Source: a virus
Virus record (IMG/VR): IMGVR_UViG_3300018481_000018
Span: 1-64,000 of that record
DNA length: 64,000 bases
Reading direction: 5' to 3' (one strand)
Shown: positions 2,847 through 44,618 of the stretch, one piece after another
Numbering within the stretch: the stretch's first letter is position 1
How the letters are laid out: every line of letters starts with the position of its first letter
The notes under the pieces: generated by a model
Database searches by the model: none
Told to the model about the DNA's origin: nothing
Seen by the model: the letters and a program-made list of their open reading frames with translations, nothing else
Made by a program: the position numbers and the translations under genes

Positions 2847-2866
2847 TCCGGACGGCCGTTTGAACG
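2847..2866 (+). promoter_or_regulatory. Start-associated 12-base-period element upstream of scaffold gene
   Basis: TCCGGACGGCCG is followed without gap by TTTGAACG, two half-sites of the TCYGRACG type 12 bases apart. It directly follows a terminator and runs into the start region of the scaffold gene (TTG at 2860). Confidence 0.55.
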
Positions 2867-3657
2867 ATGTCCCGAGCGTGGATATTGCTGAGGCCCGACG
2901 GGTGCACGACCAGCTTCTGGCCAACCGGCCAGAGGGGGCGTCGCACAACGAGGACATCTGCACGTTCTGCGTGGACAAAGCCACGGAGGACCCCACAGCG
3001 TCCCGGAACCCTCCCGCCGACGGCGGTCCGGTCGCGTCCGACACAAACCCGACAGTCCCAGACGATCACGGAGGGAGGGACACCAGTTCTATGAGTGACA
3101 TGACGCAGGAGACCCACGAGGCGCTTCTCGCCAAGGCCGTCGCCGATGCCACCTCCACCACGGAGAAGGCGCTCGAGGCGAAGACCAACGAGGCCAAGGA
3201 GCTCGCGGACAAGCTGGAGAAGGCCACGGCCGATCTGGACGCCGCGAAGTCCGACAACGAGCGCCTCAACGGAGAGCTGGACACCGCTCAGGCAGCCCGT
3301 ACAGCGGCCGAGGAGAAGGTGACCACGCTCGAGAGCGACATCAAGGCGAAGGACGAGGCGGCCGCGAAGGCGGAGATCGCCTCCAAGCGCGCCGACCAGG
3401 TTCGCAACCTCAAGCTCTTCACGGACGAGCAGGTGGCCGAGAAGGCCAGCCGCTGGGCCGAGCTGAGCGACGAGGACTGGACCGAGCGTCTCGCCGAGTG
3501 GGCGGCCCTGAAGCCGGCCAGCAGCGAGACCCCCGACTCCGACGCCGCATCCGCGATGTCGGGTACCGGTGACCTGACCAAGGAGCCAGCCTCCACGGAC
3601 ACCGCCGGTGACACCAAGAAGCCCTCTGCGCGGCGTGCCGTGCTGGGCCTGTCCTGA
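2860..3657 (+). CDS. Probable capsid scaffold protein
   Basis: The 265-residue product has a central Lys/Glu/Ala-rich coiled coil (about residues 85-190: TEKALEAKTNEAKELADKLE and onward) and precedes the decoration and major capsid genes, the usual place and composition of a scaffold. The start is uncertain. TTG at 2860 lies inside the repeat element and gives an N-terminal part with a CTFC zinc-knuckle-like pair. ATG at 3091 has a GGAGGGAGG site about 12 bases upstream and would give a purely coiled-coil protein of 188 residues. Codon use before 3091 looks coding, so I keep the longer form. Scaffold is expected to be lost from the mature head. Confidence 0.7.
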   Translation: MNDVPSVDIAEARRVHDQLLANRPEGASHNEDICTFCVDKATEDPTASRNPPADGGPVASDTNPTVPDDHGGRDTSSMSDMTQETHEALLAKAVADATSTTEKALEAKTNEAKELADKLEKATADLDAAKSDNERLNGELDTAQAARTAAEEKVTTLESDIKAKDEAAAKAEIASKRADQVRNLKLFTDEQVAEKASRWAELSDEDWTERLAEWAALKPASSETPDSDAASAMSGTGDLTKEPASTDTAGDTKKPSARRAVLGLS

Positions 3658-3675
3658 GAGGAGGTGCAGTAGTCG

Positions 3676-4221
3676 ATGGCTTACACGCGTAACTTCGGGA
3701 TGCGTTCGTTCGAGAACGTAGTCCGGGATGGGCGCTTCCGCGTTCCCCAGACCGGTACTCCGTTCGAGATCGGGGCTCCCGTGATGCTCGATCCGGCCAC
3801 TCCTGGCTTCATGAAGGCCGCCACAGAGGCGGTCGCTCCGAGCCAGAACACCGGCATCGTGATCTTCGAGCACATCCAGAACAAGTCGGATGCTCTCACC
3901 ACCCAGTACGACGCTCCTCACAACCAGGTGCCTCTCGGGCAGTACGCCCAGATCATGCACGGTCCCGGAGCGAAGGTCTGGTTCAAGGTCACCACGGACA
4001 AGACCCTGTACGACGGCCGAGTCCAGCCGGGCGGCAGCCTGCTGGTCGCCGGCCTCAACCTCTCGACCCTGGCGATCGGTTCCGGCCTCGTGCCGGATGG
4101 TGCGGGCAAGTACCGCTCCACCGATGGCTCCGGCACCGCCGACGTCGGTGGTGTGGCCTGGATGGTCGTCGAGCAGGTCAACCCCGCTACCGGTCGGGTT
4201 GAGGCCCGACTGACCTTCTGA
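3676..4221 (+). CDS. Probable head decoration protein
   Basis: The product has 181 residues, is rich in beta-type segments and Gly/Pro turns, and has no membrane or signal region. AGAGGAGG precedes the ATG. It lies between scaffold and major capsid protein, 16 bases before the latter's start, the normal place for a capsid-stabilising decoration protein. The N-terminal half (GTPFEIGAPVMLD) resembles capsid decoration folds; this is positional inference plus general appearance, with no motif that proves it. Confidence 0.6.
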   Translation: MAYTRNFGMRSFENVVRDGRFRVPQTGTPFEIGAPVMLDPATPGFMKAATEAVAPSQNTGIVIFEHIQNKSDALTTQYDAPHNQVPLGQYAQIMHGPGAKVWFKVTTDKTLYDGRVQPGGSLLVAGLNLSTLAIGSGLVPDGAGKYRSTDGSGTADVGGVAWMVVEQVNPATGRVEARLTF

Positions 4222-4237
4222 GAGGAGGAGAACTGCC

Positions 4238-5179: not shown

Positions 5180-5186
5180 TCGACCC

Positions 5187-5227
5187 ATAGCACGGGGCCC
5201 CTGCCTTCGGGTGGGGGCCTCTGCTAT
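5187..5227 (+). terminator. Hairpin after the capsid gene
   Basis: ATAGCA and GGGCCCC arms are mirrored by GGGGCCT and TGCTAT around a TTCG loop, a strong hairpin 8 bases past the capsid stop. A TT follows but there is no long T-run. Confidence 0.65.
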
Positions 5228-5525: not shown

Positions 5526-5553
5526 TAGCCTGAGCAGTGCGTGTCGAGGTGAA

Positions 5554-5573
5554 TCCGAACGTGTGTCTGGACG
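5554..5573 (+). promoter_or_regulatory. Start-associated 12-base-period element
   Basis: TCCGAACGTGTG then TCTGGACG: two half-sites exactly 12 bases apart, ending at the ATG at 5574. With the minus-strand motif at 5516 it forms a divergent control region between the two genes. Confidence 0.6.
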
Positions 5574-8018: not shown

Positions 8019-8185
8019 TGGCCCAGGCTTTGAGCCATCTGAACGGGCGTCTGTTTTGGTGGTGGGCCGTTCCGAGCTACTTCGGCGGAGCTGTCATCTG
8101 TTGGGCAGTTGCGCGTCTTCTGCGCAGCTGGTGGGAGATCGAGCACATGATCCGATCACATGAGCGTCATTTGAGGCCCGCCTGA
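8018..8185 (+). CDS. Small single-span membrane protein (55 aa)
   Basis: The ATG overlaps the previous stop (TGATG). Residues about 13-36 form a hydrophobic, aromatic segment (FWWWAVPSYFGGAVICWAV) flanked by basic residues (ARLLRSWW), a likely transmembrane helix with a positively charged cytoplasmic tail. The coding sequence contains a copy of the dispersed repeat (TCTGAACGGGCG then TCTG at 8038). A membrane protein inside the connector operon is unusual; no function can be assigned. Confidence 0.5.
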   Translation: MAQALSHLNGRLFWWWAVPSYFGGAVICWAVARLLRSWWEIEHMIRSHERHLRPA

Positions 8186-8246: not shown

Positions 8247-8519
8247 ATGGACGTGAGCTTCGACATGAAGAAGTTCCTCCGGATGAGGCGAGACCGGGCG
8301 GTCGGGTCGATCTTGGGATACGCCGAAGCGGAGATTGGGCCGAAGCTCACGAAGGCGGAGTGGGAAGCGCTGCGGCGGGTCGTGTTGGACGCCACGAACA
8401 GCTACCACGACACCGTGCTCGACCTCGTGAAGTCTGATGACTCGACGAGGAACGACCATCTGATCTCTCTCCTGGAGAGCGTGGACCGGGGACTGGCTCG
8501 TCAAGCGCAGCCGCACTAA
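8247..8519 (+). CDS. Hypothetical protein in the tail-completion region (90 aa)
   Basis: The product begins MDVSFDMKKFLRMRRDRAV and is predicted helical, with no Cys and no membrane segment. A GTG at 8238 is an alternative start 3 codons upstream; neither has a strong ribosome site. It follows the small membrane gene by 61 bases and is followed by a start-associated element at 8520. A role in tail assembly is inferred only from position. Confidence 0.5.
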   Translation: MDVSFDMKKFLRMRRDRAVGSILGYAEAEIGPKLTKAEWEALRRVVLDATNSYHDTVLDLVKSDDSTRNDHLISLLESVDRGLARQAQPH

Positions 8520-8555
8520 TCCGGACGCGTGTTCATTCCGGCTCCTCATGAGCCG
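8520..8555 (+). promoter_or_regulatory. Start-associated element plus short hairpin before gene at 8586
   Basis: TCCGGACGCGTG at 8520-8531 is one good half-site; the second (TTCATTCC) is degenerate. A perfect CGGCTC/GAGCCG hairpin with a 5-base loop follows at 8539-8555. Confidence 0.4.
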
Positions 8556-11043: not shown

Positions 11044-11091
11044 ATCCGAACATAGTCAAGTTCTCTATCTGGACGGTCGTCGAGACGATCA
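11044..11091 (+). promoter_or_regulatory. Composite regulatory element ahead of the tail chaperone gene
   Basis: ATCCGAACAT at 11044-11053 is followed by TCTGGACGGTCG at 11068-11079 and TCGAGACGATCA at 11080-11091, half-sites with a 12-base step. It ends 64 bases before the ATG at 11156. Confidence 0.55.
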
Positions 11092-12085: not shown

Positions 12086-12363
12086 CAGACATTCCCTGGT
12101 ACCTCCAGGTGGCAATTGAACAGGCGTTGACAGTGCTGGGTTGGTACGAGAATGCCGACCCAGACGAGGTTCCACCCGAGCGACTGTGGGAGGACCCTGT
12201 GGGACTTGAAGAGTGGTGGAAGTGGGTCAAGGAGAAGCACGCCGACGGGCGTGAGGATGTAGCTCCGTCCAACAGGTCTGGACGCTCGTCTGAAGATGAT
12301 GACGATGAGCATCCAGACCCTGGAATGGCCGAGAACGACATCGCTAGGTACTTGAAAGACTAG
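11156..12363 (+). CDS. Tail assembly chaperone, -1 frameshift fusion (gpGT-like)
   Basis: Slippage at A AAA AAC (11986-11992) joins the first 279 codons to a -1 frame that is open from 11974 to the stop at 12363, giving about 402 residues. The shifted part contains a clearly protein-like segment that begins before any in-frame start (IPWYLQVAIEQALTVLGWY, then LWEDPVGLEEWWKWV), so independent initiation at GTG 12109 would truncate it. Gene order and the heptamer match the well known lambda G/GT arrangement. The tape measure gene follows 11 bases later. Confidence 0.82.
11986..11992 (+). other. Programmed -1 ribosomal frameshift site (A AAA AAC)
   Basis: Six A residues plus C are read in the chaperone frame as GCA AAA AAC, the canonical X XXY YYZ slippery heptamer. 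The -1 frame downstream encodes the second chaperone domain without a stop until 12361-12363. Confidence 0.85.
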
Positions 12364-32897: not shown

Positions 32898-32972
32898 TCC
32901 CAGGTTCAGTTCCGGCTAAGCATCAGTTCCAGGTGCTTGCTCCATCGGCTCAACTGGTCTGGAGATTGCCAT

Positions 32973-33008
32973 TCTGAACGTGCATCTGGACTCGGATCCG
33001 ACCGATGT
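32973..33008 (+). promoter_or_regulatory. Triple 12-base-period element in a divergent promoter region
   Basis: Three consecutive 12-mers, TCTGAACGTGCA, TCTGGACTCGGA and TCCGACCGATGT, run without gaps. It is the clearest tandem form of the element. It lies 76 bases from the minus cassette start and 33 bases before the plus-strand ATG at 33041. Confidence 0.65.
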
Positions 33009-33890: not shown

Positions 33891-33892
33891 AC

Positions 33893-34770: not shown

Positions 34771-35072
34771 TCGCACAGGCTGTGGAAAGCCCTGTGGAGA
34801 CAGGCGTCTGGCTGTGGATACGCGTGTGGATAGGCGTCTATTTCGGCGTGTTGCTTGCGCGATCACGCTGGGCGGGGTAGAACTCATCCAGCGGAGTCGT
34901 ACACCCAGACCTCGTGTACCGCAGGATCCGCACCAGCCACTTCACTACCCAACTTGTCCGACCGCTGCCAACCTTCGGACACCCAGCCGAAAGTACCCAT
35001 GCCGCTACCGACCTGGGCTGTCAGTGCTGTCCCCTTGACTAGCACCATGAGCCCCTCCGATCACACAGCACC
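34771..35072 (+). other. Intergenic region with TGTGGA repeats, possible replication origin
   Basis: This 302-base gap between the membrane cassette and the replication module contains four TGTGGA motifs (near 34781, 34793, 34814 and 34827). Two of them extend to TGTGGATA, close to the reverse complement of the DnaA box TTATCCACA. A duplicated 12-mer AGCACCATGAGC occurs at 35041 and 35067, the second spanning the next start codon. ACCCATGCCGCTACC near 34998 recurs near 38763. A tiny ORF overlaps the TGTGGA cluster. Confidence 0.4.
34782..34880 (+). CDS. Possible single-span membrane microprotein (32 aa)
   Basis: Starting at GTG, the frame encodes a short acidic head then a hydrophobic, aromatic helix with WLWIRVWIGVYFGVLL and a basic end ARSRW, a convincing membrane peptide. 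No good ribosome site precedes it, and the same bases hold the DnaA-box-like repeats, so the hydrophobic pattern may be a by-product of the repeated GTGTGGAT sequence. Confidence 0.25.
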   Translation: MESPVETGVWLWIRVWIGVYFGVLLARSRWAG

Positions 35073-35456
35073 ATGAGCGAGCGCTCTGTCAGGTGCCCCA
35101 GGTGCCCCTTCTCCTTCGCGTCGCTGGTGGATGCGGGCGATCGCCACGCCTACCAGTGCCCGACCTGCGAGTGGGGCAAGCCGACGACAGATCGGCGTCC
35201 TGGCAACCGGCCTGCTGACGTGTGCGCTCTCTGCGATCAAGCCATTGACCTGACCACCAGCGATCACCACCTCTACCTCGGCTCCGGGTGGGTCCATGGC
35301 GGTGGGCGCGAGAACATACCGATCCACGCTTCCTGCTCGGAAGCGATGCGCGCCTACGAGCGCACCGGGACGCTTTGGACGAACGGTTGTTCTTGTCCAG
35401 AGCGCTGGCATCAGATCACTGGCGAGCACATGCGGATCTGCGAGCTGGCGGCATGA
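35073..35456 (+). CDS. Zinc-finger protein at the head of the replication module (127 aa)
   Basis: CPRC and CPTC (residues about 8-32) form one ribbon; CALC with a later HASC and CSCPERWH may form a second site. No catalytic motif. The stop overlaps the nuclease gene start (ATGA), so both are likely co-translated. A DNA-binding or regulatory role is inferred. Confidence 0.65.
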   Translation: MSERSVRCPRCPFSFASLVDAGDRHAYQCPTCEWGKPTTDRRPGNRPADVCALCDQAIDLTTSDHHLYLGSGWVHGGGRENIPIHASCSEAMRAYERTGTLWTNGCSCPERWHQITGEHMRICELAA

Positions 35457-36274
35457 GGGTCAGGCAGAGTGACTTGAAGATGTGGGGCAAGTGCCCCCTG
35501 GTCTACAAGTTCACCTACCTCGATGGGCTGGCGCGCGAGCAGTCCGGCTCGCTGACCTTCGGCTCGATCATCCACGACTGCGTGCTCTGGATGGAGGTCA
35601 ACCAGGACCTCGACGGCGCGATCGCGCGCTTCCAGGAGCTCTGGATCCAGCCGACCTTGCTCGATCCCACCTACCAGCCCGAGTACTACGTGCGCGGCAC
35701 GTCGTGGAAGAAGTTCATGGAGAAGGGTCCCAAGATCCTCAAGGACTGGTGGGGCATCGTTTCGTGGGACTCCTCTCTCGTTCTAGCTCGCGAGCACTAC
35801 TTCGAGGTTCCCATCGGCGACGGCCACACTCTCTTCGGCACTGCCGACAAGATCGAGATTGGCTACCGCGCTGACATCAACCAGCAGGTCCTGAAGATTG
35901 TCGACTACAAGACCGACAACAAGAACCCGACGTACGACTACCTGGCTGAGGATCTCCAGTTCTCCTCCTACGCCTATGCCTCCACCCAGCGCGAGTTCTG
36001 GGTCAACCTCGGCGGCGACGCCGCGTGGCAGAAGTACCGCGATCTGCTCAGGTACGGCGAGTGGGTCCAGCTCACCGGCCCGAAACGGATGGACGCCGGA
36101 ATCCGCGAGCAGCGGCACTACAACCGGATCGAGATGGCGGTCGACGCCCTGGCCGACTCGGTCGCCATGCGGATCTTCGTCCCCAACATCAGCGGCGCGA
36201 CCTGCCGCTACTGCGACTTCCGGAAGCCGTGTGGCCTGCCGGAGCTTGATGAGAATGGAGAGCTAGTCCAGTAA
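35453..36274 (+). CDS. RecB/Cas4-type PD-(D/E)XK exonuclease with Fe-S cluster
   Basis: The 273-residue product has the nuclease motifs GSIIHD (His41), GTAD (Asp132), IVDYKTD (Asp151, Lys153) and Q..SSYAYA (Gln169, Tyr173). Cys14 plus CRYCDFRKPC (Cys251, 254, 260) supply the four ligands of a 4Fe-4S cluster, as in Cas4 and AddB. It is expected to resect DNA ends for recombination. It is followed by a Sak4-like recombinase and SSB, forming a phage recombination module. No CRISPR array or cas1 is nearby, so a spacer-acquisition role is not supported. Confidence 0.85.
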   Translation: MRVRQSDLKMWGKCPLVYKFTYLDGLAREQSGSLTFGSIIHDCVLWMEVNQDLDGAIARFQELWIQPTLLDPTYQPEYYVRGTSWKKFMEKGPKILKDWWGIVSWDSSLVLAREHYFEVPIGDGHTLFGTADKIEIGYRADINQQVLKIVDYKTDNKNPTYDYLAEDLQFSSYAYASTQREFWVNLGGDAAWQKYRDLLRYGEWVQLTGPKRMDAGIREQRHYNRIEMAVDALADSVAMRIFVPNISGATCRYCDFRKPCGLPELDENGELVQ

Positions 36275-36320
36275 CCCCACAACACCGCAACCACGCAACC
36301 ACGCAAGAGAAAGCAGACAC

Positions 36321-38027
36321 ATGTCCCAAGTCGCGATGTTCAGTAGGACCGGGAGCGCAGACTTCCCGGACTACCTGAAGTGCATGATCACCGGACCCCC
36401 GAAGTCCGGCAAGACGTCCCTGCTCGGCACCGTCCCGAACATCCTTGTTCTCGACACCGAGCCGCACGCCAACAACCTCCAGTCGATCGCCCATCTGGAC
36501 GTCCCGTTCAAGGCGATCCACTCCACCGACGAGCTTCGGCAGGCGCAGTTCGTCCTGAGCCAGGACGCCTTCAGGATCCAGGCTGCGCAGGCTCTCGGGA
36601 TGCCTGACATCGAGGCTGTCGCCATCGACACTCTCGACACGCTCCAGGGCATCATGAAGAAGGAGCGCATGCGTGAGCAGCGTGCGACCAAGTTCTACCG
36701 GGACGACTGGGGCTGGTTGAAAGACGAGATGATGGCCATCGTCCAGTCCTTCACGGCGCTTCCGATGCACGTCTTCTTCATCGTGCACACCAAGAGCTCG
36801 AACGTCGGGACCGAGGACAACCCCAAGACCGTGATCCTGCCGGGCCTCGAGGGGGCCCTCGCAGAGAAGATCGCCGGCGAGGTGGGCTACTCCCTGCTGT
36901 CCTTCCGCAAGGAGGAGATCAAGCCCGACGGCACGAAGTACACCAAGTACTGGCTGCGCGCTGAAGGCGATGAGACCTACGAGTACCTGGGGAACCGGGC
37001 CGCTGGCCGACTGCCGGATGTGATCGAGCCCGACTTCAAGACCTTGCTCGATGCCGCCCTGGCGAACCGGCCGACCACCTCGCATCAGAACGTGGCTGTC
37101 GACCTGGGGATTCAGACGACCGCCCAGATGCCGCAACAGGGCCAGACGAGCAACACGGCGGCGGGGACTGCTCAGGTCACGCCATCCACTCCGGCCAACT
37201 CCACTGGCCCAGCTCCAGTGGCTCAGAATCCGGGCCAGCAGCAGTCTCCGCAGCAGGCTCAGCCGCAGGGCACCCCGCAGAACCTGCCCGCCGACTCCGA
37301 TCCGATGAATGCGGCCGCCCTGGGTCACGTCAAGAAGGTCTACGACGCCCTCCAGGTCACGATGCCCGAGGACAAGATCATGGCTCTGAATCTGGGCCAG
37401 GCTCGCGGTCTCGTGCGGATGTGGAAGGCCGTCCAGACCGATGCCGAGTCGGGTTCGGGTACAGGCCACCCGGAGATGGTCGATTACCTACGTGGACAGG
37501 GCTTGCTGCCTGACGAGGGCGCGGCTCAGCCCGAGCCCGAGAAGAAGGTCGAGGCCGACCTGCACGGCACGATCGAGCAGGTCAAGGCGTACGTCGGCGA
37601 TGATCTGGGACGCGCGAACGAGGCGTTCGAGGTTGAGCGCACCGGCAAGAACCGGACCTCGCTCATGTCGTGGCTGGAATCGAAGGGCGCTTCGCATGGC
37701 GGAGTTCAGACACCCGTCCAGACTCCCGAGCAGCCAGCCGAGCAGTCGGCGACCCCCGACGGACCGGCGGAATCGGCCCCAGAGGCCCCGTCGGAAGGGG
37801 TTACTTCCGAGCCTCAGGCAGCCGATGCACCTTCCACTGAGGACCAAGCGGTAGCCAACGTGCAGGAGGCTCTCGGCGGCGAGGTCGTCGGCGGCGGGAT
37901 CAACCCCGAAGCGGCTTGCGAGCAGTGCGGGAACCAGATCGACGATGTGGATCTGGCGCAGCTGGGCAAGAGCCGGTTCGGGCGCATCCTGTGCGTCGCG
38001 GACTACATCGCAGAGACCAAGAAGTGA
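36321..38027 (+). CDS. Sak4-like RecA-fold ATPase with a long C-terminal extension (568 aa)
   Basis: Residues 20-235 form a compact RecA-type ATPase: Walker A GPPKSGKT (25-32), Walker B AVAIDTLD (Asp103) and IVHTKSS. This matches the Sak4/AAA_24 single-strand annealing recombinases. Unlike the usual ~230-residue proteins, it continues with a Gln/Pro/Ala-rich linker (about 270-330), two helical segments (about 335-400 and 415-460), another Pro-rich linker and a CEQC-containing end. The upstream leader contains repeated CAACCACG. It lies between nuclease and SSB and probably pairs single strands with SSB. Confidence 0.8.
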   Translation: MSQVAMFSRTGSADFPDYLKCMITGPPKSGKTSLLGTVPNILVLDTEPHANNLQSIAHLDVPFKAIHSTDELRQAQFVLSQDAFRIQAAQALGMPDIEAVAIDTLDTLQGIMKKERMREQRATKFYRDDWGWLKDEMMAIVQSFTALPMHVFFIVHTKSSNVGTEDNPKTVILPGLEGALAEKIAGEVGYSLLSFRKEEIKPDGTKYTKYWLRAEGDETYEYLGNRAAGRLPDVIEPDFKTLLDAALANRPTTSHQNVAVDLGIQTTAQMPQQGQTSNTAAGTAQVTPSTPANSTGPAPVAQNPGQQQSPQQAQPQGTPQNLPADSDPMNAAALGHVKKVYDALQVTMPEDKIMALNLGQARGLVRMWKAVQTDAESGSGTGHPEMVDYLRGQGLLPDEGAAQPEPEKKVEADLHGTIEQVKAYVGDDLGRANEAFEVERTGKNRTSLMSWLESKGASHGGVQTPVQTPEQPAEQSATPDGPAESAPEAPSEGVTSEPQAADAPSTEDQAVANVQEALGGEVVGGGINPEAACEQCGNQIDDVDLAQLGKSRFGRILCVADYIAETKK

Positions 38028-38082
38028 AGCCGCAGCGACGGCTACCGCATACCTCAACTGAAACGGAAACGGAGATCGCATC

Positions 38083-38700
38083 ATGGCAAAGCTGAGGGTC
38101 GAAGAGCAGCAGGAGTTCTCGCTCCTGCCGGTGGACACCATCCTTCTGTTGAAGGTGGACGAGCTCACCGAGAAGCCGATGACCACCAACGGTCGGGACT
38201 GGACCAAGCTCGAGATCAAGTTCAAGATCCTTCAGGTCATCGCGACCGGCGACGGCTCTCCCGTCCAGAACTACGAGGACCAGATCGCCGGCCCCATCTG
38301 GGGCGGCGTCTCGCTCCGGCTGACCGAGCACCCCGAGAACAAGCTCCGCATGTGGGCCGAGGCGATCCTCGGGATCGAGATGGGCGTCGGTTTCGAACTG
38401 GACACCGAGGTCTTCATGGGCCGTGAGGTCAAGGGCATCGTCTCGCAGTACCCGAAGAAGGCGGTCGACCCCAAGACCGGCCAGCCGTTCAAGGGTCACC
38501 AGGTCGAGTCACTGATTCCCAACACGGCGGCTCCCTACACGCAGGCCCCGCAGCAGCAGTACGCGCCGCCCGCGCAGCAGTACGCACAACCGCAGCAGTC
38601 GGCACAGCAGCAGTACCCGGGTCAGCACCAGACTGTTCCTGGCGCAGACCCGTGGGCAGCACCAGGGGGAACATTCGGCGACGACGAGCCGCCCTTCTGA
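38083..38700 (+). CDS. ssb: Single-stranded DNA-binding protein (205 aa)
   Basis: An N-terminal OB-fold-like domain (1-140, with VDTILLLKVDELTEKP and WTKLEIKFKILQVI) is followed by a Gln/Ala/Pro-rich flexible region (about 150-190) and an acidic tip DDEPPF, the classic SSB C-terminal peptide that recruits partner enzymes. The position after the recombinase fits. The primary sequence of the OB part is divergent from bacterial SSB, so assignment rests on tail, linker and context. Confidence 0.75.
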   Translation: MAKLRVEEQQEFSLLPVDTILLLKVDELTEKPMTTNGRDWTKLEIKFKILQVIATGDGSPVQNYEDQIAGPIWGGVSLRLTEHPENKLRMWAEAILGIEMGVGFELDTEVFMGREVKGIVSQYPKKAVDPKTGQPFKGHQVESLIPNTAAPYTQAPQQQYAPPAQQYAQPQQSAQQQYPGQHQTVPGADPWAAPGGTFGDDEPPF

Positions 38701-38705
38701 CATGA

Positions 38706-38738
38706 AGAGGGACCGGCGCTGCCAACGCCGGTCCCTCT
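38706..38738 (+). terminator. Perfect hairpin after the SSB gene
   Basis: AGAGGGACCGGCG pairs exactly with CGCCGGTCCCTCT around a 7-base loop, five bases past the stop. There is no T-run, so termination may be partial. Confidence 0.7.
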
Positions 38739-38812
38739 CAGTCCCCCTGCTAACACCTCAAGACCCATGCCGCTACCAACCGGAAGGAACCTCGCGTGTC
38801 AGCGCTCAGTCA

Positions 38813-38828
38813 ATCCGAACATTCGGAT
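38813..38828. promoter_or_regulatory. Palindromic operator ATCCGAA-CA-TTCGGAT
   Basis: A perfect inverted repeat with 7-base arms and a 2-base centre, lying 68 bases before the primase-helicase start and immediately upstream of a promoter-like sequence. It shares its half-site with the motifs at 797, 5516, 11044 and 47214. Confidence 0.65.
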
Positions 38829-38830
38829 AA

Positions 38831-38858
38831 TTGCAAGGTCTCTCGGAACTTTTATACC
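38831..38858 (+). promoter_or_regulatory. Possible sigma-70 type promoter of the primase-helicase gene
   Basis: TTGCAA at 38831-38836 and TATACC at 38853-38858 are separated by 16 bases, in an unusually AT-rich stretch for this genome, next to the palindrome. The geometry suits repression by a protein bound at 38813-38828. Confidence 0.4.
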
Positions 38859-38896
38859 GGCTTGACTGGACTTGTCGCCCGAAGGGGTGGTAACGG

Positions 38897-41143
38897 ATGG
38901 TGAAGCTGACGCTCGTTGCAAACAACGCTCGTCCCAACAGCAATCTGGCCGCGCATCGCACGAGCGCCACCGAGGGTGAAGCCGCGAAGCGCCTCTTGGA
39001 GTCCCAGGGGTACGTCTGCAAGCGCAAGGCCAACGGCCAGTACGAGTTCCCCTGCCCGTTCCACGAGGGCCCCGGCTCCATCGAGCCGCGCAAGTCGGCC
39101 AACTTCTACATGAACGTCACTACCTCGGAGTACTTCTGCCAGTCCGCGTCGTGCGGAGAGCGCGGGAACCTTCAGTTGCTCGAGCGTCACTTCGGGATTG
39201 GCGTCGACGACGAGTACATCGCGCTCTTCAAGGATCGGGACACGCGTCTGAAGGAGTTCGAGCGCAACCTGACCAACGCGCTGCGCAAGCCCTTCTACGA
39301 ACACGGGCTGACGGACGCGACGATCGAGCGCTTCCGGCTGGGCTACGAGCCCGAGCACACCGAGGAGTTCGAGGACGAGGACGGCTCGCGCAAGACTCGC
39401 ATGATCCCTGGGCGGTACGTGATCCCGTACCTCGAGGGCCGCCGGCCGAAGTTCTTCCGGTACTACTCGCCTGACGGTGACCCGAAGTGGAAGTACACCT
39501 GGGAGTCTGGCGCGGAGGGCACGCTCTACAACGGCCAGGACGCCATTGGTGATGCTCAGGGGGTCGTCTACCTGTGCGAGGGCGAGCAGAAGGCCATGCT
39601 GCTGGTCCAGATGGGCTACGCGGCCGTCGCGGTGCCAGGAGCCAGTCAGTGGAAGGACGAGTTCCAGGCGGCGTTCACGCACGCCAAGAAGGTCATCATC
39701 GTCTACGACAACGACAACCCGCTCTTCCACATCTACGACAAGCCCGAGCAGGGCATCGTCTGTCGGAAGTGTGCAGGCCGGCAGCTGGATCGCTGCCAGG
39801 GTCATAACCCCGGCCAGGAAGCCGCCATGAAGCGGTTGGAGCAGATCGGCTGGCGCGCGAAGAACGTCCTCCTGCCACTACCGGACGATTCGGTGAAGAA
39901 GACCGACATCAACGACTTCTTCATGCGCGATGGGTTCACGAACGCCGACTTCGCCGAGCTTGCGACAGGCAAGCGCGCGACGCCGTACCGAGTTCAGACG
40001 TTCGCCGAAATCACGGCAAGTCCTCCCGAGGAGGCGCAGTTCCTCGTTGAGAGCGGCATCCTGAGCAAGGCCGGGCGGCTGCTGGTGGCCGGGAAGCCGA
40101 AGGTGGGCAAGTCGATCTTCGTCGACAACCTCGTGCTGTCCCTCGCCTCGGGGATCCCGTTTCTCAAGAGCGGATCGTTCCCAGGGTTCCAGATCGACCA
40201 CCCGACCAGGACTCTGCTGCTTGACCGCGAGTTGAGCAAGTGGGCCTTGTTCAACCGGCTCACCGATCTCTCTGATGATCGTGCCGGGTACAAGGCGGCA
40301 GCTGAGAACCTCCTGATCGACCACGACCACCTGATCAGGCTCGATCAGGCCAACGCGCACGACACCCTGCTAGCCCTGGTGGAGCAGAACGGCGCTGAGG
40401 TGGTGGTCCTCGACACTGCCTACAAGTTCTTCGGGGGCGATGTCGAGAGCTCATCGAGTCTCATGAAGGGCTTCGAGGTTCTGGACCGGATCATCCACCA
40501 AACTGGATGCTCGTTCGTTCTCACCCACCACCACAAGAAGGGTCAGGGTGGCAACGGGAAGCAGAACACCGACATCGCCGACCCGGACAACGTGGCGGGC
40601 TCGTTCCTGTGGACCGGCTGGCCGAACGCGACGATCCTGCTGAACTACCTCAACCGCTCGGTCGAGAACCCGTTCAACGCGATCGCCACGTTCACCGCCT
40701 TCCGTGATGCGGCACCACCCGAGCCGGTGGCGATCTACCGCGATCGGAACTCGATCAGCTACACATCCATCGAGCGCTACAACCACGAGGAAGCCGACCT
40801 GGCCGCTGGCAGTCGAGTCACGGTTACCAAGCCGGATACCGACACCGTGGAGCAGATCCTGCTCGAGCTCGCTCCGGTCACCGAGGACGAGTTCCTGCAC
40901 ATCGCCGCGAGCAAGTTCGGGGTCTCGATCCCAACACTGAAGCCGTACTACATCGACGCCATGTCGCGGGGGAACTTCGAGAAGACGAAGAGCGCCCCGC
41001 CCATCCTCAAGTTCGTCCACGAGCCGGAGGAAGAACAGTCCTGGGAAGCCGAGCATGGCCTGCCTGAGAAGCCGATGCCAGCCAACGCCGGCGTCAGCCT
41101 CGAGGACGTGCCCATGTTCGAAACAGCAGGGGTCATCGAGTAA
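38897..41143 (+). CDS. Primase-helicase fusion (748 aa)
   Basis: Domains in order: a CHC2-like zinc finger (Cys53, His56, Cys81, Cys86); a TOPRIM primase core with YLCEGEQKAMLL near 228 and VYDND near 275; a Cys-rich insertion (IVCRKC, DRCQGH); and a RecA/RepA-type ATPase with Walker A AGKPKVGKS near 398, VVVLDTAYKF and a THHHKKG motif. It should prime and unwind DNA at the fork. AGGGGTGG precedes the ATG. No replicative polymerase gene is in the window. The C-terminus after about residue 640 is a winged-helix-like extension. Confidence 0.85.
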   Translation: MVKLTLVANNARPNSNLAAHRTSATEGEAAKRLLESQGYVCKRKANGQYEFPCPFHEGPGSIEPRKSANFYMNVTTSEYFCQSASCGERGNLQLLERHFGIGVDDEYIALFKDRDTRLKEFERNLTNALRKPFYEHGLTDATIERFRLGYEPEHTEEFEDEDGSRKTRMIPGRYVIPYLEGRRPKFFRYYSPDGDPKWKYTWESGAEGTLYNGQDAIGDAQGVVYLCEGEQKAMLLVQMGYAAVAVPGASQWKDEFQAAFTHAKKVIIVYDNDNPLFHIYDKPEQGIVCRKCAGRQLDRCQGHNPGQEAAMKRLEQIGWRAKNVLLPLPDDSVKKTDINDFFMRDGFTNADFAELATGKRATPYRVQTFAEITASPPEEAQFLVESGILSKAGRLLVAGKPKVGKSIFVDNLVLSLASGIPFLKSGSFPGFQIDHPTRTLLLDRELSKWALFNRLTDLSDDRAGYKAAAENLLIDHDHLIRLDQANAHDTLLALVEQNGAEVVVLDTAYKFFGGDVESSSSLMKGFEVLDRIIHQTGCSFVLTHHHKKGQGGNGKQNTDIADPDNVAGSFLWTGWPNATILLNYLNRSVENPFNAIATFTAFRDAAPPEPVAIYRDRNSISYTSIERYNHEEADLAAGSRVTVTKPDTDTVEQILLELAPVTEDEFLHIAASKFGVSIPTLKPYYIDAMSRGNFEKTKSAPPILKFVHEPEEEQSWEAEHGLPEKPMPANAGVSLEDVPMFETAGVIE

Positions 41144-41161
41144 CAACTACCTGGAGGTGCC

Positions 41162-41320
41162 ATGAAGAAGAAGCCATGTCCCGTGTCCGATGACGGTCGC
41201 CAGAAGCACTACTTCGTCAAGAAGGTCGGCGAGTTCACGTGCGTCCACTGCGGAACGATGTCCAACCGGATGCAGCGGTGGGAGCTTGCCCCAATGCCGG
41301 TTGCCGAGGCCGCAGTCTGA
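41162..41320 (+). CDS. Zinc-ribbon small protein (52 aa)
   Basis: GGAGG precedes the ATG, 18 bases after the primase-helicase stop. Sequence features are KKKPCPVSDDGRQKHYF and CVHCG, giving C...H...CxxC ligands for one zinc. It resembles small phage ribbons that accompany replication genes. It is followed directly by a strong hairpin, so it ends the replication operon. Function unknown. Confidence 0.65.
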   Translation: MKKKPCPVSDDGRQKHYFVKKVGEFTCVHCGTMSNRMQRWELAPMPVAEAAV

Positions 41321-41324
41321 AACA

Positions 41325-41359
41325 GAGAGCGGCGGCCAGAAGAACCGGCCGCCGCTCTC
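41325..41359 (+). terminator. Perfect GC-rich hairpin ending the replication operon
   Basis: GAGAGCGGCGGCC pairs exactly with GGCCGCCGCTCTC around 9 bases. It starts 5 bases after the stop at 41320 and lacks a clear T-run. Confidence 0.75.
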
Positions 41360-41435
41360 AGGACTGCCACGTCCTGTGACCATGCGTCACTACCCGAGAG
41401 GAAGTCTGACAGAGATTCTGGCTAGCGCCAACACA

Positions 41436-41455
41436 TTCAGACGCGTGTCGGATTT
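41436..41455 (+). promoter_or_regulatory. Start-associated element before gene at 41480
   Basis: TTCAGACGCGTG then TCGGATTT; it lies after a terminator hairpin and 25 bases before the ATG, so it may include the promoter of the small-gene block. Confidence 0.5.
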
Positions 41456-41479
41456 CTTTCCCAAGCCCTAGGAGGCTCG

Positions 41480-41638
41480 ATGATCGAGGTTGAAACATCC
41501 GTTGTGATCCACGCCGGCGAGCCGCGCGTGCTTCTCCAGTTGCCCTACGGGCACATCGTCGTGCGGCCCGAAGATGCGCGGCAGATCGCGGCACAGCTCA
41601 CCATGACCGCCGAGGACGCCGAGAGGAGTCTTCTGTGA
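41480..41638 (+). CDS. Small protein of unknown function (52 aa)
   Basis: AGGAGG lies 4 bases before the ATG. The product MIEVETSVVIHAGEPRVLLQ continues to a helical, acidic end; it looks like a small beta-alpha domain. The stop overlaps the next GTG start (GTGA). No family recognised. Confidence 0.6.
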   Translation: MIEVETSVVIHAGEPRVLLQLPYGHIVVRPEDARQIAAQLTMTAEDAERSLL

Positions 41639-41811
41639 TCAGCCGATACCACTTGCTCTGTACGGGTTGCTGGCACTGGAACTCGCACAGGCAGTCATCT
41701 GATGGGCGATGTGCGAACTGCTCGGCCGCACCCGAGTCCCTCTTGATGTTCAACCCCAGGGAGCGGCGCGCCTTGGAGTGCTCCATCGCTTTCGAGAGCG
41801 CCCACGCCTAA
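41635..41811 (+). CDS. Zinc-ribbon small protein (58 aa)
   Basis: The GTG start lies in a GTGA overlap. CTGC near residue 9 and CANC near 26 form a zinc ribbon, followed by a helix with NPRERRALECSIAFESAHA. It is co-translated with the preceding gene. Function unknown. Confidence 0.55.
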   Translation: MISRYHLLCTGCWHWNSHRQSSDGRCANCSAAPESLLMFNPRERRALECSIAFESAHA

Positions 41812-42137
41812 GTAGACGTGCGTCTGTACTACCGGGGTTGATGCGTCCCCGTTACCCGCACATCGCCGGAGTAGTTGGCCGGTCCAACCCAGGTCAGAGC
41901 TGGTTGTACCTCTATGCCGGTTGAGGCCCGGCTTCGTGAATGGCGTATCAAGATACGCACGCACTCAGCGGCAAGATGGCGGTCCACCTAAGCAGTGGGC
42001 GAGGGGCGACGGTGCAGAACCGCCCCGCCGGCGAGGCGATGCGGCGGAGCCGCTCTGGCTCTTCGGGTAGCGCTCAAGACGCTGATGTGCGGCGTGTCCT
42101 ACCCGAACAAACGGGCATCTGGATCCAGGATGAGCAG
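41812..42137 (+). other. Interval with little clear coding content
   Basis: It holds a degenerate repeat element (GTAGACGTGCG then TCTG, from about 41812), one possible 27-residue ORF at 41841, a perfect inverted repeat GCGTATC-AA-GATACGC at 41943-41958, and a GC-rich, hairpin-forming stretch to about 42070. The frame of the gene at 42138 stays open back to ATG 41940, but the upstream codons look less protein-like and there is no ribosome site. Confidence 0.4.
41841..41924 (+). CDS. Possible microprotein (27 aa)
   Basis: ATG follows CCGGGG by 3 bases. The frame encodes 27 residues ending WLYLYAG, just after the repeat element at 41812. It is short and unrecognised; support is only the start-associated element and a plausible ribosome site. 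Confidence 0.25.
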   Translation: MRPRYPHIAGVVGRSNPGQSWLYLYAG

Positions 42138-42332
42138 ATGCACACGTACATCGAGTACGAGTCCGAGCACCTGGTGGCGATCATCGGGCCCTTCGGTTCG
42201 AGATGGATGGCCGATGACTGGGCTCGCAAGATCACCGACAACGACAGCGCTTCCTGGAGTGGGATCACCGTGATGAGTCCTGAGGAAGCGGTAGAGGCCC
42301 TGAGGCTGAGTAAGACGGGATCGCTCTCATGA
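42138..42332 (+). CDS. Hypothetical small protein (64 aa)
   Basis: The product begins MHTYIEYESEHLVAIIGPFG and ends EAVEALRLSKTGSLS, a plausible alpha/beta domain. AGGA lies about 8 bases before the ATG. The frame is open upstream to ATG 41940 (130 residues), and the preceding residues GIWIQDEQ could belong to the protein, so the start is uncertain. No family recognised. Confidence 0.45.
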   Translation: MHTYIEYESEHLVAIIGPFGSRWMADDWARKITDNDSASWSGITVMSPEEAVEALRLSKTGSLS

Positions 42333-42439
42333 CTCGTCGGCCCTCATCCACTCGTCCTCCCAGGACCGGGCTTCGCCCTCTCGCTTCGCTCGCCCTGGTG
42401 CGGGCGGCGGCTGAGACCTCCTCGCGGGGATGGTGAGAG

Positions 42440-42589
42440 ATGTACGAAGTAGTGCTGAGGCTCGACGCGCCGACTGCTCACTACGACGTGGGTCAGGTGG
42501 CGGCAGCCGTTGGCCTGGCCATGAGCGACTACGAGGGCACCAAGGATCTGGAGCTTCACGAGATTCGGGTCGAGAGGGAAGACGCGTGA
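42440..42589 (+). CDS. Small acidic protein (49 aa)
   Basis: GGTGAGAG precedes the ATG. The product MYEVVLRLDAPTAHYDVGQV continues with an amphipathic helix and ends IRVEREDA; a small ferredoxin-like beta-alpha-beta unit is possible. The stop precedes the secreted-protein gene. Function unknown. Confidence 0.55.
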   Translation: MYEVVLRLDAPTAHYDVGQVAAAVGLAMSDYEGTKDLELHEIRVEREDA

Positions 42590-42621
42590 CCATCGGGCAA
42601 CCAAACAACCTGAGGAGAATG

Positions 42622-42957
42622 ATGAGCAAGATCCTGGCCCTTCTAGGGGCCCTTGTAGCTGCGACGGTGCTCGTGGTCACGTTCCTGACCCCCGCTGCCG
42701 CGACGGTGCAGACCATCGTGGTTGAGGTTCCCACCACTCGTCAGGCGGGGGCGCAGACCTTGCAGTTCGGGTGCGGTAACGGCGCTAAGCCGGTCGCGGC
42801 CGGATACGCGCTGAATGCGACGGCGGGACTGGCATCGGTACGCGTGATCGAGTCGAGGGTCGCCCTGGACAACGACTATGTGTGGAACTTCAAGGTGCTG
42901 CCCGGTAGCGCGAAGAACCTGACCGTCTCGGTCTCGCTCACCTGTGTCCGGCAGTAA
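42622..42957 (+). CDS. Predicted secreted protein (111 aa)
   Basis: A classical signal peptide is visible: basic MSK, hydrophobic ILALLGALVAATVLVVTFL, then TPAAA as a likely cleavage site near residue 27. The mature part of about 84 residues is beta-type, with a pair of Cys (FGCGNG and LTCVRQ) that could form a disulphide outside the cell. GAGGAG lies 5 bases before the ATG at 42622; an ATG 3 bases earlier and an upstream GTG at 42586 are alternatives. Secreted phage proteins outside the lysis genes often alter the lysogen or exclude other phages, but function here is unknown. Confidence 0.65.
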   Translation: MSKILALLGALVAATVLVVTFLTPAAATVQTIVVEVPTTRQAGAQTLQFGCGNGAKPVAAGYALNATAGLASVRVIESRVALDNDYVWNFKVLPGSAKNLTVSVSLTCVRQ

Positions 42958-42960
42958 TCC

Positions 42961-43449
42961 ATGACTTCAGACGAGCATCAGAACATCGCGATTCCGGTCG
43001 GCGAGTTCGAGGGTGAGTTCATCCGCAACTTCGAGGGCAGGCTGCCGGCGCTGACGCTGGACATGCCCGAGGGGTACCGACGAGGCACGCATCTGAAGCT
43101 CGAGGTTGAGGTGCGGATCCGCAACGTCGACTTCATTGAGGGCAAGAGCCGCAATGGTGAGCCCGGAGATCTGTCTCGGAACCACGTCTTCGCCCTAGAG
43201 GAGATTCGGCTGGTCGACGCGTGGGATCCGGCCAACCGGCCGAGCAACGTCAGTGGCAACCTGGCGGCCGACAGCTGGGAGGAGACGTTTCTCGACTTCG
43301 TGCACGGCGATACTGACGAGCTCGACTTCGACGGAGAGCTGGTGCCTCAGCGGGTCCAAGACATGCTCAAGGCGTACTGGGACGCGTTCGGCGGCGTTTC
43401 GACACCTGTCGGAATGCCAGCGCCAGCCGATGATGATGTGGAGTTCTGA
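42961..43449 (+). CDS. Conserved-looking phage protein, SSB-like acidic C-terminus (162 aa)
   Basis: The product is beta-rich in its first half (GTHLKLEVEVRIRNVDFIEG, HVFALEEIRLVDAWD), possibly an OB-type fold, and helical later. It ends in DDDVEF, strikingly like an SSB tip. There is no strong ribosome site; the ATG lies 3 bases after the previous stop and within 5 bases of a repeat element (42966). It may be a DNA-metabolism protein that uses the same partner-recruiting peptide as SSB; this is inference. Confidence 0.6.
   Translation: MTSDEHQNIAIPVGEFEGEFIRNFEGRLPALTLDMPEGYRRGTHLKLEVEVRIRNVDFIEGKSRNGEPGDLSRNHVFALEEIRLVDAWDPANRPSNVSGNLAADSWEETFLDFVHGDTDELDFDGELVPQRVQDMLKAYWDAFGGVSTPVGMPAPADDDVEF
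42966..42985 (+). promoter_or_regulatory. Start-associated element overlapping a start codon region
   Basis: TTCAGACGAGCA then TCAGAACA, beginning 5 bases after the start of the ATG at 42961. Close in sequence to the copy at 44243. Confidence 0.4.
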
Positions 43450-43655
43450 TGCGTCGGTTCGAACTTCAGCGGGACGAGGACGTCAGCGGCGTCTCAGGCA
43501 CGGGGGTCGTAGCCGAGGGCCTCGAGTTCACTGACGGGCGTGTGGTGTTGCGATGGCTCAGTGAGCATCGCTCGACGGTTATCTGGGACTCGATCGAATC
43601 GGTGGAGGTCATCCACGGTCACGATGGCCGCACGAAGATCAGATGGGTCGACTGA
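43449..43655 (+). CDS. Small conserved protein (68 aa)
   Basis: MRRFELQRDEDVSGVSGTGVV, then RVVLRWLSEHRSTVIWDSIE and VIHGHDGRTKIRWVD: a small beta-barrel-like protein of a type seen repeatedly in actinobacterial genomes and phages, with no established function that I can name. It overlaps both neighbours by one base (TGATG), so it is tightly coupled. Confidence 0.65.
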   Translation: MRRFELQRDEDVSGVSGTGVVAEGLEFTDGRVVLRWLSEHRSTVIWDSIESVEVIHGHDGRTKIRWVD

Positions 43656-43918
43656 TGGGCCTCAAGCACGGATCCCGGAAGGCGCGCTCACAGTCTCCCA
43701 AGAGGGTTCGTCGGCGGGACCTGAAGAAGCCCACAGGCCAGGGCTACGACCCGCGCGTCCTGCTGATCCAGTGCCCAGTGTGTGAGCGGGGCGTGGGTCA
43801 GCATTGCGTCAGCACCGGCAGCAATGGATCCTGGAGCGACTACAGTTACAGCGCGCCCGGGAGAGAGTTGGAGAATCCTCACCCCGATCGCGTGGCGCTG
43901 GCTCGAGGGCCCCGGTGA
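43655..43918 (+). CDS. Basic zinc-finger protein (87 aa)
   Basis: The basic N-terminus (KHGSRKARSQSPKRVRRRDLKK) could bind nucleic acid. CPVCERGVGQHC supplies three zinc ligands of a small knuckle, with a downstream HPDR. It is coupled to the preceding gene (TGATG) and overlaps the HNH gene (GTGA). Its role next to an endonuclease is unknown. Confidence 0.6.
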   Translation: MGLKHGSRKARSQSPKRVRRRDLKKPTGQGYDPRVLLIQCPVCERGVGQHCVSTGSNGSWSDYSYSAPGRELENPHPDRVALARGPR

Positions 43919-44241
43919 GCAGGTACACGGGACTTCCCGAGGCCCTGCGCCAGGAGGTTCTGACGCGTGACAGTTTCCGCTGCCGCTGGTGCGGGGCGAC
44001 GAATCAGGGCGGGGATCTCCATCACATCGAGTACCGGCGTGGGTACTCCTATGACCGGCTCGACAACTTGATCACGCTCTGCCGGCTGCATCATGGGTTC
44101 GTGCACGGGACTCCGCTGAAGAACGGTGACCGGATCACGAAGGCTCAGGCCCAGGAGGTTCTGCGCTGGCTCGTCGAACATCCGGGCACCACGGGCAGCT
44201 CGAGGTGGCGAGCTGTGAAGCGTCGGATCGCCATGTCATGA
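43915..44241 (+). CDS. HNH endonuclease (108 aa)
   Basis: The product has RDSFRCRWCG (Cys23, Cys26), DLHHIEYRRG (His36/His37), DNLITLC (Asn51, Cys56) and RLHHGFVH, the complete HNH signature with its structural CxxC...C.. zinc site. The GTG start overlaps the previous stop. It could be a free-standing homing-type nuclease or a packaging helper; HNH packaging partners normally sit beside terminase genes, which are not here. Confidence 0.85.
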   Translation: MSRYTGLPEALRQEVLTRDSFRCRWCGATNQGGDLHHIEYRRGYSYDRLDNLITLCRLHHGFVHGTPLKNGDRITKAQAQEVLRWLVEHPGTTGSSRWRAVKRRIAMS

Positions 44242-44474
44242 AAACAGACGAGCGTTCAGAATGTATCGTGCGCGTTGTGAAGTGCCCCACATGGTGCGAT
44301 GAGCGGTGTCCAGCTGTGTGCCATGAGGTTCATGTGCATGCGAACCGACGGCACGAGCCAGAAGACTGTCCCGGCGTGAAGGATCGGCTTCAGGCGGCCT
44401 GCGTCGAGTGTGGGAACGACGACCCGACCGAGGGGTACAAGTACTGCTCGGACTGCCTCGAGGCGCTGTTCTAG
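44238..44474 (+). CDS. Cys/His-rich zinc protein (78 aa)
   Basis: ATG in an ATGA overlap. Cys residues in CPTWCDERCPAVC, EDCPG, CVEC and YCSDC, with several His, give at least eight ligands, suggesting two zinc sites. A repeat element (44243) lies across the first codons, so a GTG start at about 44277 is an alternative. Function unknown. Confidence 0.55.
   Translation: MKTDERSECIVRVVKCPTWCDERCPAVCHEVHVHANRRHEPEDCPGVKDRLQAACVECGNDDPTEGYKYCSDCLEALF
44243..44262 (+). promoter_or_regulatory. Start-associated element across the first codons of gene at 44238
   Basis: AACAGACGAGCG then TTCAGAAT; its reverse complement reads ATTCTGAACGCTCGTCTGTT, matching the orientation of the copies at 8038 and 32973. 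Confidence 0.45.
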
Positions 44475-44477
44475 CCC

Positions 44478-44618
44478 ATGTTCAGGCGCTTGGTCGACTG
44501 GCTCATGCCGTGGTTCGTTCGAGGTGGCTGCGGCGACTACCAGGCGTGCTGCCCGGACTGCGAGCAGGAGTGGGGTCGACCGCAATCTGAACGGCCGTCT
44601 GGACGATCAACCACCTGA
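44478..44618 (+). CDS. Zinc-ribbon small protein (46 aa)
   Basis: The product begins MFRRLVDWLMPWFVRGGCG, an amphipathic or membrane-associating helix, and has CCPDCEQEWG as a ribbon half. Its last codons contain the repeat element at 44586, so the 3' part may be shaped by regulation of the next gene. It starts 3 bases after the previous stop. Function unknown. Confidence 0.45.
   Translation: MFRRLVDWLMPWFVRGGCGDYQACCPDCEQEWGRPQSERPSGRSTT
44586..44605 (+). promoter_or_regulatory. Start-associated element before the second fibre operon
   Basis: TCTGAACGGCCG then TCTGGACG, the best match to the consensus, ending 28 bases before the ATG at 44634. It probably controls the 44.6-53.8 kb fibre genes. 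Confidence 0.6.

What the first reader, a model, noticed from the sequence alone, without database searches (positions are those of the whole stretch)
2847..44605. Dispersed start-associated element made of 8-base half-sites with a 12-base period
Half-sites of the form TCYGRACG occur in tandem with a strict 12-base step at 2847, 5554, 8520 (one degenerate), 11068, 32973 (three in a row), 33470, 41436, 42966, 44243 and 44586, plus 28512 on the minus strand. Most are intergenic, and nearly all lie within about 70 bases of a gene start or across it. Related one-off copies occur in coding sequence (8038, 12277). The period of 12 and the combination TCTGAACG-NNNN-TCTGGACG suggest cooperative binding of one protein along the helix, or an unusual promoter. 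Cluster K mycobacteriophages have start-associated sequences and cluster A phages have stoperators, but those consensus sequences differ from this one.
Basis: partly seen in the sequence, partly recalled or inferred. Interest (0 to 1): 0.82.

Follow-up and report, generated by a model that had tools for sequence, protein, structure and literature searches.

The report
Hundred-plus dispersed palindromic phage binding sites
A family of large uncultured bacterial viruses carries about one copy per kilobase of the same 18-20-letter palindrome, spread evenly and mostly inside genes, probably as docking sites for a small LexA-like DNA-binding protein that the virus itself encodes.

Summary
The "8-base half-sites with a 12-base step" are the two arms of one dyad-symmetric site, TTCNGACGNNCGTCNGAA (core GAC-RNNY-GTC). 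The 144.4-kb phage holds 123 matches (80 in the window); about 100 are expected to be real. A matrix trained on the window alone finds 39 sites in the unseen 80 kb (controls 0-3) and 107 in a relative with ~45% protein identity (controls 0-7).

It is not a start-associated element: about 73% of sites lie inside genes and start enrichment is modest. Sites are unoriented, more evenly spaced than chance, and turn over quickly while density is kept (6 of 34 retained at ~75% DNA identity). A small subset recurs upstream of the same genes, for example terL.

The best candidate binder is a 91-aa LexA-type winged-helix protein at genome 133326-133601, outside the window. It is found in every motif-bearing relative whose terminase region is held. 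The Gram-positive LexA box has the same half-site spacing. Most likely it is a dimeric, genome-wide regulator or silencer, working like cluster A stoperators but failing their defining tests (asymmetric, oriented, intergenic). Binding and function are inferred; no experiment supports either.

The parts
2846..2865 (.). Dyad site (reader 2847), intergenic, just 3' of a terminator-like hairpin and upstream of the gene at 2902
   Evidence: score 20.5; a site upstream of the orthologous gene also occurs in G003, G005, G007 and G009
5553..5572 (.). Dyad site (reader 5554), intergenic
   Evidence: score 18.0; orthologues in G003, G005 and G007 also have an upstream site
8037..8056 (.). Dyad site (reader 8038); intergenic by the gene call used here, not coding
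   Evidence: score 18.9
8519..8538 (.). Dyad site (reader 8520), intergenic; a site at the same distance (57 bp) before the orthologue in G005
   Evidence: score 18.4
11067..11086 (.). Dyad site (reader 11068), intergenic
   Evidence: score 16.7
12276..12295 (.). Dyad site (reader 12277), intragenic
   Evidence: score 18.1
15873..15892 (.). Dyad site inside the 2787-aa ORF, one of the stronger intragenic sites
   Evidence: score 21
28513..28532 (.). Dyad site (reader 28512), intragenic, in a minus-strand gene
   Evidence: score 18.2
32972..32991 (.).
   Evidence: score 17.8
33469..33488 (.). Dyad site (reader 33470), intergenic
   Evidence: score 17.6
41435..41454 (.). Dyad site (reader 41436), intergenic
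   Evidence: score 21.8
42965..42984 (.). Dyad site (reader 42966), at the 5' end of a gene
   Evidence: score 15.7
44242..44261 (.). Dyad site (reader 44243), intergenic
   Evidence: score 20.1
44585..44604 (.). Dyad site (reader 44586), intergenic
   Evidence: score 18.4
61159..61178 (.). Dyad site, intragenic, one of the strongest in the window
   Evidence: score 22
33041..54318. Rightward gene block with the highest site density: 42 sites, 19.7 per 10 kb against 5.1 in the neighbouring leftward block. The other window sites are listed
59421..60422 (-). Tyrosine recombinase (Phage_integrase), suggests a temperate phage
   Evidence: PF00589, E=4e-27; orthologues in G003 and G005

Best explanation
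The element is a dyad-symmetric protein-binding site of about 18-20 bp, consensus TTCNGACGNNCGTCNGAA (core GAC-RNNY-GTC). It is present in roughly 100 or more functional-quality copies per 145-kb genome across a lineage of uncultured tailed phages. The most likely binder is the phage's own 75-100-aa LexA-type winged-helix protein, encoded at genome 133326-133601 (outside the window) at the head of the rusA/terS-like/terL gene group and acting as a dimer. A few sites sit at conserved promoter-proximal positions (before terL and before a gene upstream of the putative capsid gene) and probably act as operators. The many intragenic sites are interchangeable, unoriented and evenly spread, so their effect should depend on density. 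The proposed mechanism is that bound dimers act genome-wide as transcription roadblocks or as an architectural coat that holds phage transcription down in some phase (lysogeny, or before late expression), and the block is lifted when the protein is lost. Shown by computation: the dyad, its reality, lineage-wide conservation, spacing, turnover, and co-occurrence with the LexA-like gene. Inferred: which protein binds, dimer binding, and silencing.
For: Reality: the window-trained matrix finds 39 sites in the unseen 80 kb (0-3 in order-5 Markov controls) and 107 in G003 (0-7). The pattern with up to 2 mismatches gives 31 against 0 in the reversed control. Protein site rather than hairpin: Watson-Crick matching of mirrored positions equals the expectation from independent columns. 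Lineage-wide: present in G003, G005, G007, G009 and nearly all contigs that share the putative capsid protein; near absent in the G002 lineage, G019, G022 and GX15bay. Binder: LexA_DNA_bind is the top Pfam match in five of six LexA-like proteins scanned here (a paralogue included) and is above the curated cut-off in G003, G005, G008 and G009; the window phage's own copy scores 20.6 against 23.7. The AlphaFold model (pLDDT 81.6) has LexA as top PDB hit, E = 1.3e-3, and aligns to LexA-DNA complexes at 1.3 A over 67 residues. Recognition helix and wing are the conserved parts. Of 46 families present in all three 144-149-kb motif-bearing genomes, it is the only one found in no motif-poor contig that also carries a predicted DNA-binding domain. 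The Gram-positive LexA box CGAACRNRYGTTYC (PMC2248561) has the same half-site spacing. In G005 a site lies 43 bp before the gene. Operators: coincident upstream sites at orthologous genes 15 against 3.0; terL sites centred 18-22 bp before the start in four genomes. Distributed role: coding sites 89 against 16.9, gaps under 300 bp 17 against 31 and 10 against 33, turnover, integrase.
Against: No binding data exist. The LexA-like gene lies in a terminase gene group, which is unusual for a lysogeny repressor. It has no dimerization or peptidase domain, so dimer binding is assumed. In the window's own phage the nearest site to the gene is about 930 bp upstream, so autoregulation is not general. 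Site density varies fourfold between blocks, more than a plain coat predicts. Motif-poor contigs are fragments, and the shared presence of motif and gene is partly shared ancestry. Temperate life is inferred from the integrase only.
Confidence: 0.5

Rival explanations
1. Phage nucleoid/architectural system without a primary repressor role: the LexA-like dimer marks or bends DNA at about 1-kb intervals to organise the genome during replication, lysogeny or packaging. The promoter sites are incidental.
For: Even spacing in all five genomes tested, significantly so in four; density kept while positions change; sites unoriented and mostly intragenic; the gene stands next to rusA, the terS-like gene and terL.
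Against: Some sites are kept at the same distance before orthologous genes; intergenic enrichment of 1.7- to 3.3-fold; density is not uniform.
Confidence: 0.25
2. Self-identity tags comparable to bacterial DNA uptake sequences: dispersed sites let a phage machine (packaging, recombination or nuclease protection) recognise its own DNA, so sites accumulate anywhere they are tolerated.
For: About one per kb, intragenic, both orientations, fast turnover and even spacing; gene located with the terminase genes.
Against: No phage precedent known to me; conserved promoter-proximal sites are not predicted; the palindrome and the LexA-like protein suggest an ordinary regulator.
Confidence: 0.1
3. The sites are bound by another protein: a host LexA-like or TetR-like regulator, the HTH protein next to terL (135350-135910), or, in the G003/G007 branch, the second LexA-type protein beside the PD-(D/E)XK nuclease.
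For: The terS-like HTH_3 protein is conserved beside terL; G003 and G007 carry a second protein with a strong LexA domain (72 bits).
Against: The terL-adjacent HTH protein also occurs in the motif-poor G019 and G022; no second LexA-type protein was found in the window's phage or G005; the known host LexA box differs in its core (GAAC, not GNAC or GGAC).
Confidence: 0.2
4. Artefact of iterative motif fitting, codon usage or base composition.
For: The matrix was refined on the same genome; GC is 64% and CGTC/GACG are common words.
Against: Held-out and cross-genome tests, reversed controls near zero, protein- and codon-preserving shuffles, and near absence in syntenic relatives of similar GC such as G002.
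Confidence: 0.02

Closest known systems
Stoperators of cluster A mycobacteriophages (L5, Bxb1, TipsytheTRex)
   Same: Many copies of one regulator-binding site spread over a phage genome, with a few at promoters (operators) and the rest elsewhere; found in phages with an integrase.
   Different: Stoperators are 13-bp asymmetric sites, 24-34 per genome, mainly intergenic, oriented with transcription, bound by a monomer with two DNA-binding domains, and well conserved in position between L5 and D29 (PMC3029335, PMC5712189, PMC9283540). Here: palindromic, about 100 or more, about 73% intragenic, unoriented, rapid turnover, LexA-type candidate binder.
LexA and its Gram-positive SOS box (CGAACRNRYGTTYC)
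   Same: Winged-helix family and half-site spacing (GAAC-N4-GTTC against GGAC/GNAC-N4-GTCC/GTNC, R and Y at the ends of the 4-bp centre).
   Different: Core sequence differs; the candidate protein is only the DNA-binding domain, without the self-cleaving peptidase domain; about 100 dispersed sites rather than a small regulon.
Lsr2/H-NS-like silencers carried by phages
   Same: Possible genome-wide silencing or architectural role by a small phage-encoded DNA-binding protein.
   Different: Those are known as nucleoid-associated silencers (PMC8612146, PMC7002338, abstracts only; from my own knowledge they favour AT-rich DNA rather than a defined palindrome). No Lsr2 match appeared in the Pfam surveys here.
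DNA uptake sequences (Haemophilus, Neisseria)
   Same: Hundreds to thousands of short intragenic motifs used to tell self from foreign DNA (PMC7811141, PMC2346458, abstracts only).
   Different: Uptake motifs serve natural competence of bacteria; here a palindromic site in a virus.
Cluster K start-associated sequences
   Same: Some sites lie just upstream of start codons.
   Different: Start association is weak here, and most sites are intragenic.

Membership tests
Cluster A stoperator system | Multiple copies of one binding site throughout a phage genome | tested here: met
   123 matches in G000, 138 in G003, 82 in G005
Cluster A stoperator system | Asymmetric 13-bp site bound by a monomer | tested here: not met
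   dyad-symmetric 18-20-bp site; monomer or dimer state not testable
Cluster A stoperator system | One orientation relative to transcription | tested here: not met
   no half-site asymmetry along transcription in four of five genomes, weak in G003 (p=0.009)
Cluster A stoperator system | Mainly intergenic | tested here: not met
   28% intergenic in G000, 16% in G003
Cluster A stoperator system | Binding represses initiation and elongation, maintains lysogeny | not testable with these tools
   needs reporter assays
LexA DNA-binding-domain family (candidate binder) | LexA_DNA_bind (PF01726) winged-helix domain | tested here: met
   above the curated cut-off in G003, G005, G008 and G009 homologues, just below in G000 (20.6 against 23.7); top PDB fold match is LexA
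LexA repressor proper (SOS regulator) | C-terminal self-cleaving peptidase S24 domain | tested here: not met
   the protein is 91 aa, DNA-binding domain only; no S24 peptidase family listed in the Pfam surveys
LexA box | CGAACRNRYGTTYC core | tested here: not met
   same spacing, different core GAC-RNNY-GTC
Nucleic-acid hairpin or terminator element | Covariation between arms | tested here: not met
   mirrored-pair matches equal independence
Start-associated sequence | Location at gene starts | tested here: not met
   39 of 123 against 24.4 +/- 4.2 at random; most sites intragenic

The most novel reading that the evidence does not exclude
A whole lineage of large phages uses a sequence-specific, evenly spaced, density-dependent DNA-coating system built from a stand-alone LexA-type winged helix and about 100-140 interchangeable palindromes per genome: a phage chromatin or self-identity system distinct from both stoperators and nonspecific nucleoid proteins.
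Probability: 0.3. Interest if true: 0.88.

Novelty: new variant of a known kind. Interest (0 to 1): 0.75.

Why it matters
Stoperators are the only well-studied case known to me of a phage repressor working at many dispersed sites. This is a second, independent design with a symmetric site, a different protein fold, several times more sites per genome, intragenic placement and fast turnover. It gives a named candidate protein and predicted sites that can be tested with one binding assay. It also raises a general question: why would selection maintain a density of sites but not their positions?

Tried and rejected
(1) Tandem 12-bp direct repeat: the single half-site is barely enriched, only 17 of 28 half-sites in the window lie within dyads, and the symmetric model explains the sites. 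(2) RNA hairpin or terminator: no arm covariation. (3) Start-associated element: modest enrichment only. (4) Prophages in sequenced bacterial genomes by TerL and capsid alignments: none found, so the host is unknown. (5) Named phage relatives: the LexA-like protein has no match in the phages collection; nearest TerL is GX15bay at 43%, which has 2 motif hits in 41.7 kb. (6) Site positions conserved across relatives: mostly not; the exception is a small upstream subset. (7) terL-upstream site as universal: it occurs in G000, G003/G010, G005 and G007, not in most other terL-bearing contigs. (9) Rfam on the window: nothing. (10) PDB sequence search with the two-sequence profile: no significant hit. 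(11) A reversed-sequence control is not informative for unspecified dyads, so trained matrices with Markov and protein-preserving controls were used.

Full report
What was checked. The single 8-mer TCYGRACG occurs 28 times in the window against 18.6 expected, a weak signal. The spaced pair with up to 2 mismatches occurs 16 times against 1.25. Reading the flanks and refining a matrix over the whole 144,413-bp virus record, fetched in stretches, showed that the unit is a palindrome, TTCNGACGNNCGTCNGAA, whose two arms look like a direct repeat with a 12-bp step. With up to 2 mismatches it has 31 sites in the record and none in the reversed control. All 13 reader coordinates score as dyads.

Is it real? 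A matrix trained only on the window finds 39 sites in the remaining 80 kb (reversed 1, order-5 Markov 0-3) and 107 in the 149-kb relative G003 (reversed 2, Markov 0-7). Genome-specific matrices give 123, 138, 82, 68 and 58 sites in G000, G003, G005, G007 and G009, but only 4-5 in G022 and G019. Coding-region sites number 89 against a mean of 16.9 and a maximum of 25 in shuffles that keep every protein and its codon usage. So some 15-20% of coding hits at that threshold may be chance, and roughly 100 sites in G000 are expected to be real.

Anatomy. The most conserved positions are T..GAC / GTC..A around a 4-bp centre RNNY. Mirrored positions match no more often than independent columns predict, which fits two protein subunits each reading one half and argues against a hairpin. 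Sites show no orientation along transcription in four of five genomes. In G000, 28% are intergenic against 8.5% of the genome. Start proximity is modest: 39 of 123 against 24.4 +/- 4.2. Density is highest in the rightward block 33041-54318 (19.7 per 10 kb) and low in the leftward block 54876-120972 (5.1). Spacing is more even than chance in all five genomes, significantly in four: for gaps under 300 bp, 17 against 31, 10 against 33, 6 against 12, 9 against 18, and 8 against 12.5 (p=0.07).

Evolution. The motif occurs in nearly every contig of an uncultured family found through the putative capsid protein and terminase, and is near absent in the G002 lineage, G019, G022 and GX15bay. Single sites are short-lived: at about 75% DNA identity only 6 of 34 sites are retained, and key positions are no better conserved than flanks in most comparisons. 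Between divergent genomes few sites coincide within genes, although more than chance. A small upstream subset is kept at similar distances from orthologous starts: 15 coincidences against 3.0 expected, maximum 11. Examples are terL (centre 18-22 bp before the start in G000, G003, G005, G007) and the gene at 2902. The terL site is not universal.

The candidate binder. A Pfam survey of the 117-144-kb region found one LexA_DNA_bind-like protein, located by inspection at 133326-133601 and identified. It begins the gene group lexA-like, rusA..., terS-like, terL. Syntenic homologues exist in G003, G005, G008, G009 and several shorter contigs. G006 and G007 are cut before that locus. G019 and G022, motif-poor, have terL but no homologue in the held sequence. 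Among 46 families present in the three 144-149-kb genomes, it is the only one that is missing from all three motif-poor contigs and carries a predicted DNA-binding domain; three other families share its distribution (including G009), and several more are missing from those contigs but were not found in the G009 fragment. The AlphaFold model (mean pLDDT 81.6) matches LexA best in the PDB, including the LexA-DNA complex at 1.3 A over 67 residues, with other winged helices close behind. The Gram-positive LexA box CGAACRNRYGTTYC (PMC2248561) has the same half-site spacing but a different core.

How it most likely works. The best-supported reading is a phage-encoded LexA-type winged helix that binds its palindromes as a dimer at a few promoters (operators) and at about a hundred interchangeable places elsewhere. 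The output is genome-wide repression or organisation of phage DNA. The integrase makes a lysogenic phase plausible, and the phage sigma factor shows that the phage has transcription control of its own. The binder, the dimer and the silencing are inferences. The main rival is a purely architectural role, suggested by even spacing, turnover and the terminase neighbourhood.

Comparison with known systems. Stoperators of cluster A phages work in a similar way but are 13-bp asymmetric, mostly intergenic, oriented, monomer-bound and 24-34 per genome (PMC3029335, PMC5712189, PMC9283540). Three of their defining features were tested and not met, so this is not filed as a stoperator system. LexA proper is excluded by the missing peptidase domain and the different core. 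The verdict is a new variant of a known kind (dispersed phage operator sites), with some probability of something categorically new.

Limits. Genes were called by a simple script; starts may be off by some codons. Contigs are metagenomic and partly fragmentary. Thresholds set on reversed sequence leave some false sites. No host is known. Nothing here is experimental.

Noticed in passing
G000, e.g. 11045, 38814 and 47221 in the window; 78480, 85556, 92154, 137904 in the record: A second word, CAATCCGAACA(T/A)T, is almost strictly intergenic: TCCGAACA has 18 copies, 17 intergenic, in G000, and 18 copies, 15 intergenic, in G003. It usually points towards a gene start and sometimes sits 7-14 bp before the start codon, overlapping the right arm of a dyad. 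Possibly a promoter element; this is the better start-associated element.
   Followed up: partly
L119:6258-6485 (G003:105758-105985, minus) and G007:55734-55961 (plus): A second stand-alone LexA DNA-binding-domain protein (72 bits to PF01726 in the G003 copy) beside the PD-(D/E)XK nuclease in the G003/G007 branch; none found in G000 or G005.
   Followed up: partly
G000 leftward region, about 55.8-116 kb: The Pfam survey lists single matches to Ku, an ATP-dependent DNA ligase domain, a WGR domain and SPFH/Band 7, so the phage may carry a Ku/ligase end-joining set. The individual genes were not located.
   Followed up: no
G000:86899-89384 (minus): MoxR-type AAA ATPase (bpMoxR, PF20030) next to a conserved 386-aa protein without a Pfam match; both conserved in G003 and G005.
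   Followed up: no
G000:127349-128281 (plus): Phage-encoded sigma-70 family factor with regions 2, 3 and 4; in G003 and G005 a dyad site lies 18-30 bp before its start, not in G000.
   Followed up: partly
window 12375-20738: Single 2787-aa ORF in a structural gene region, probably a tape-measure protein.
   Followed up: no
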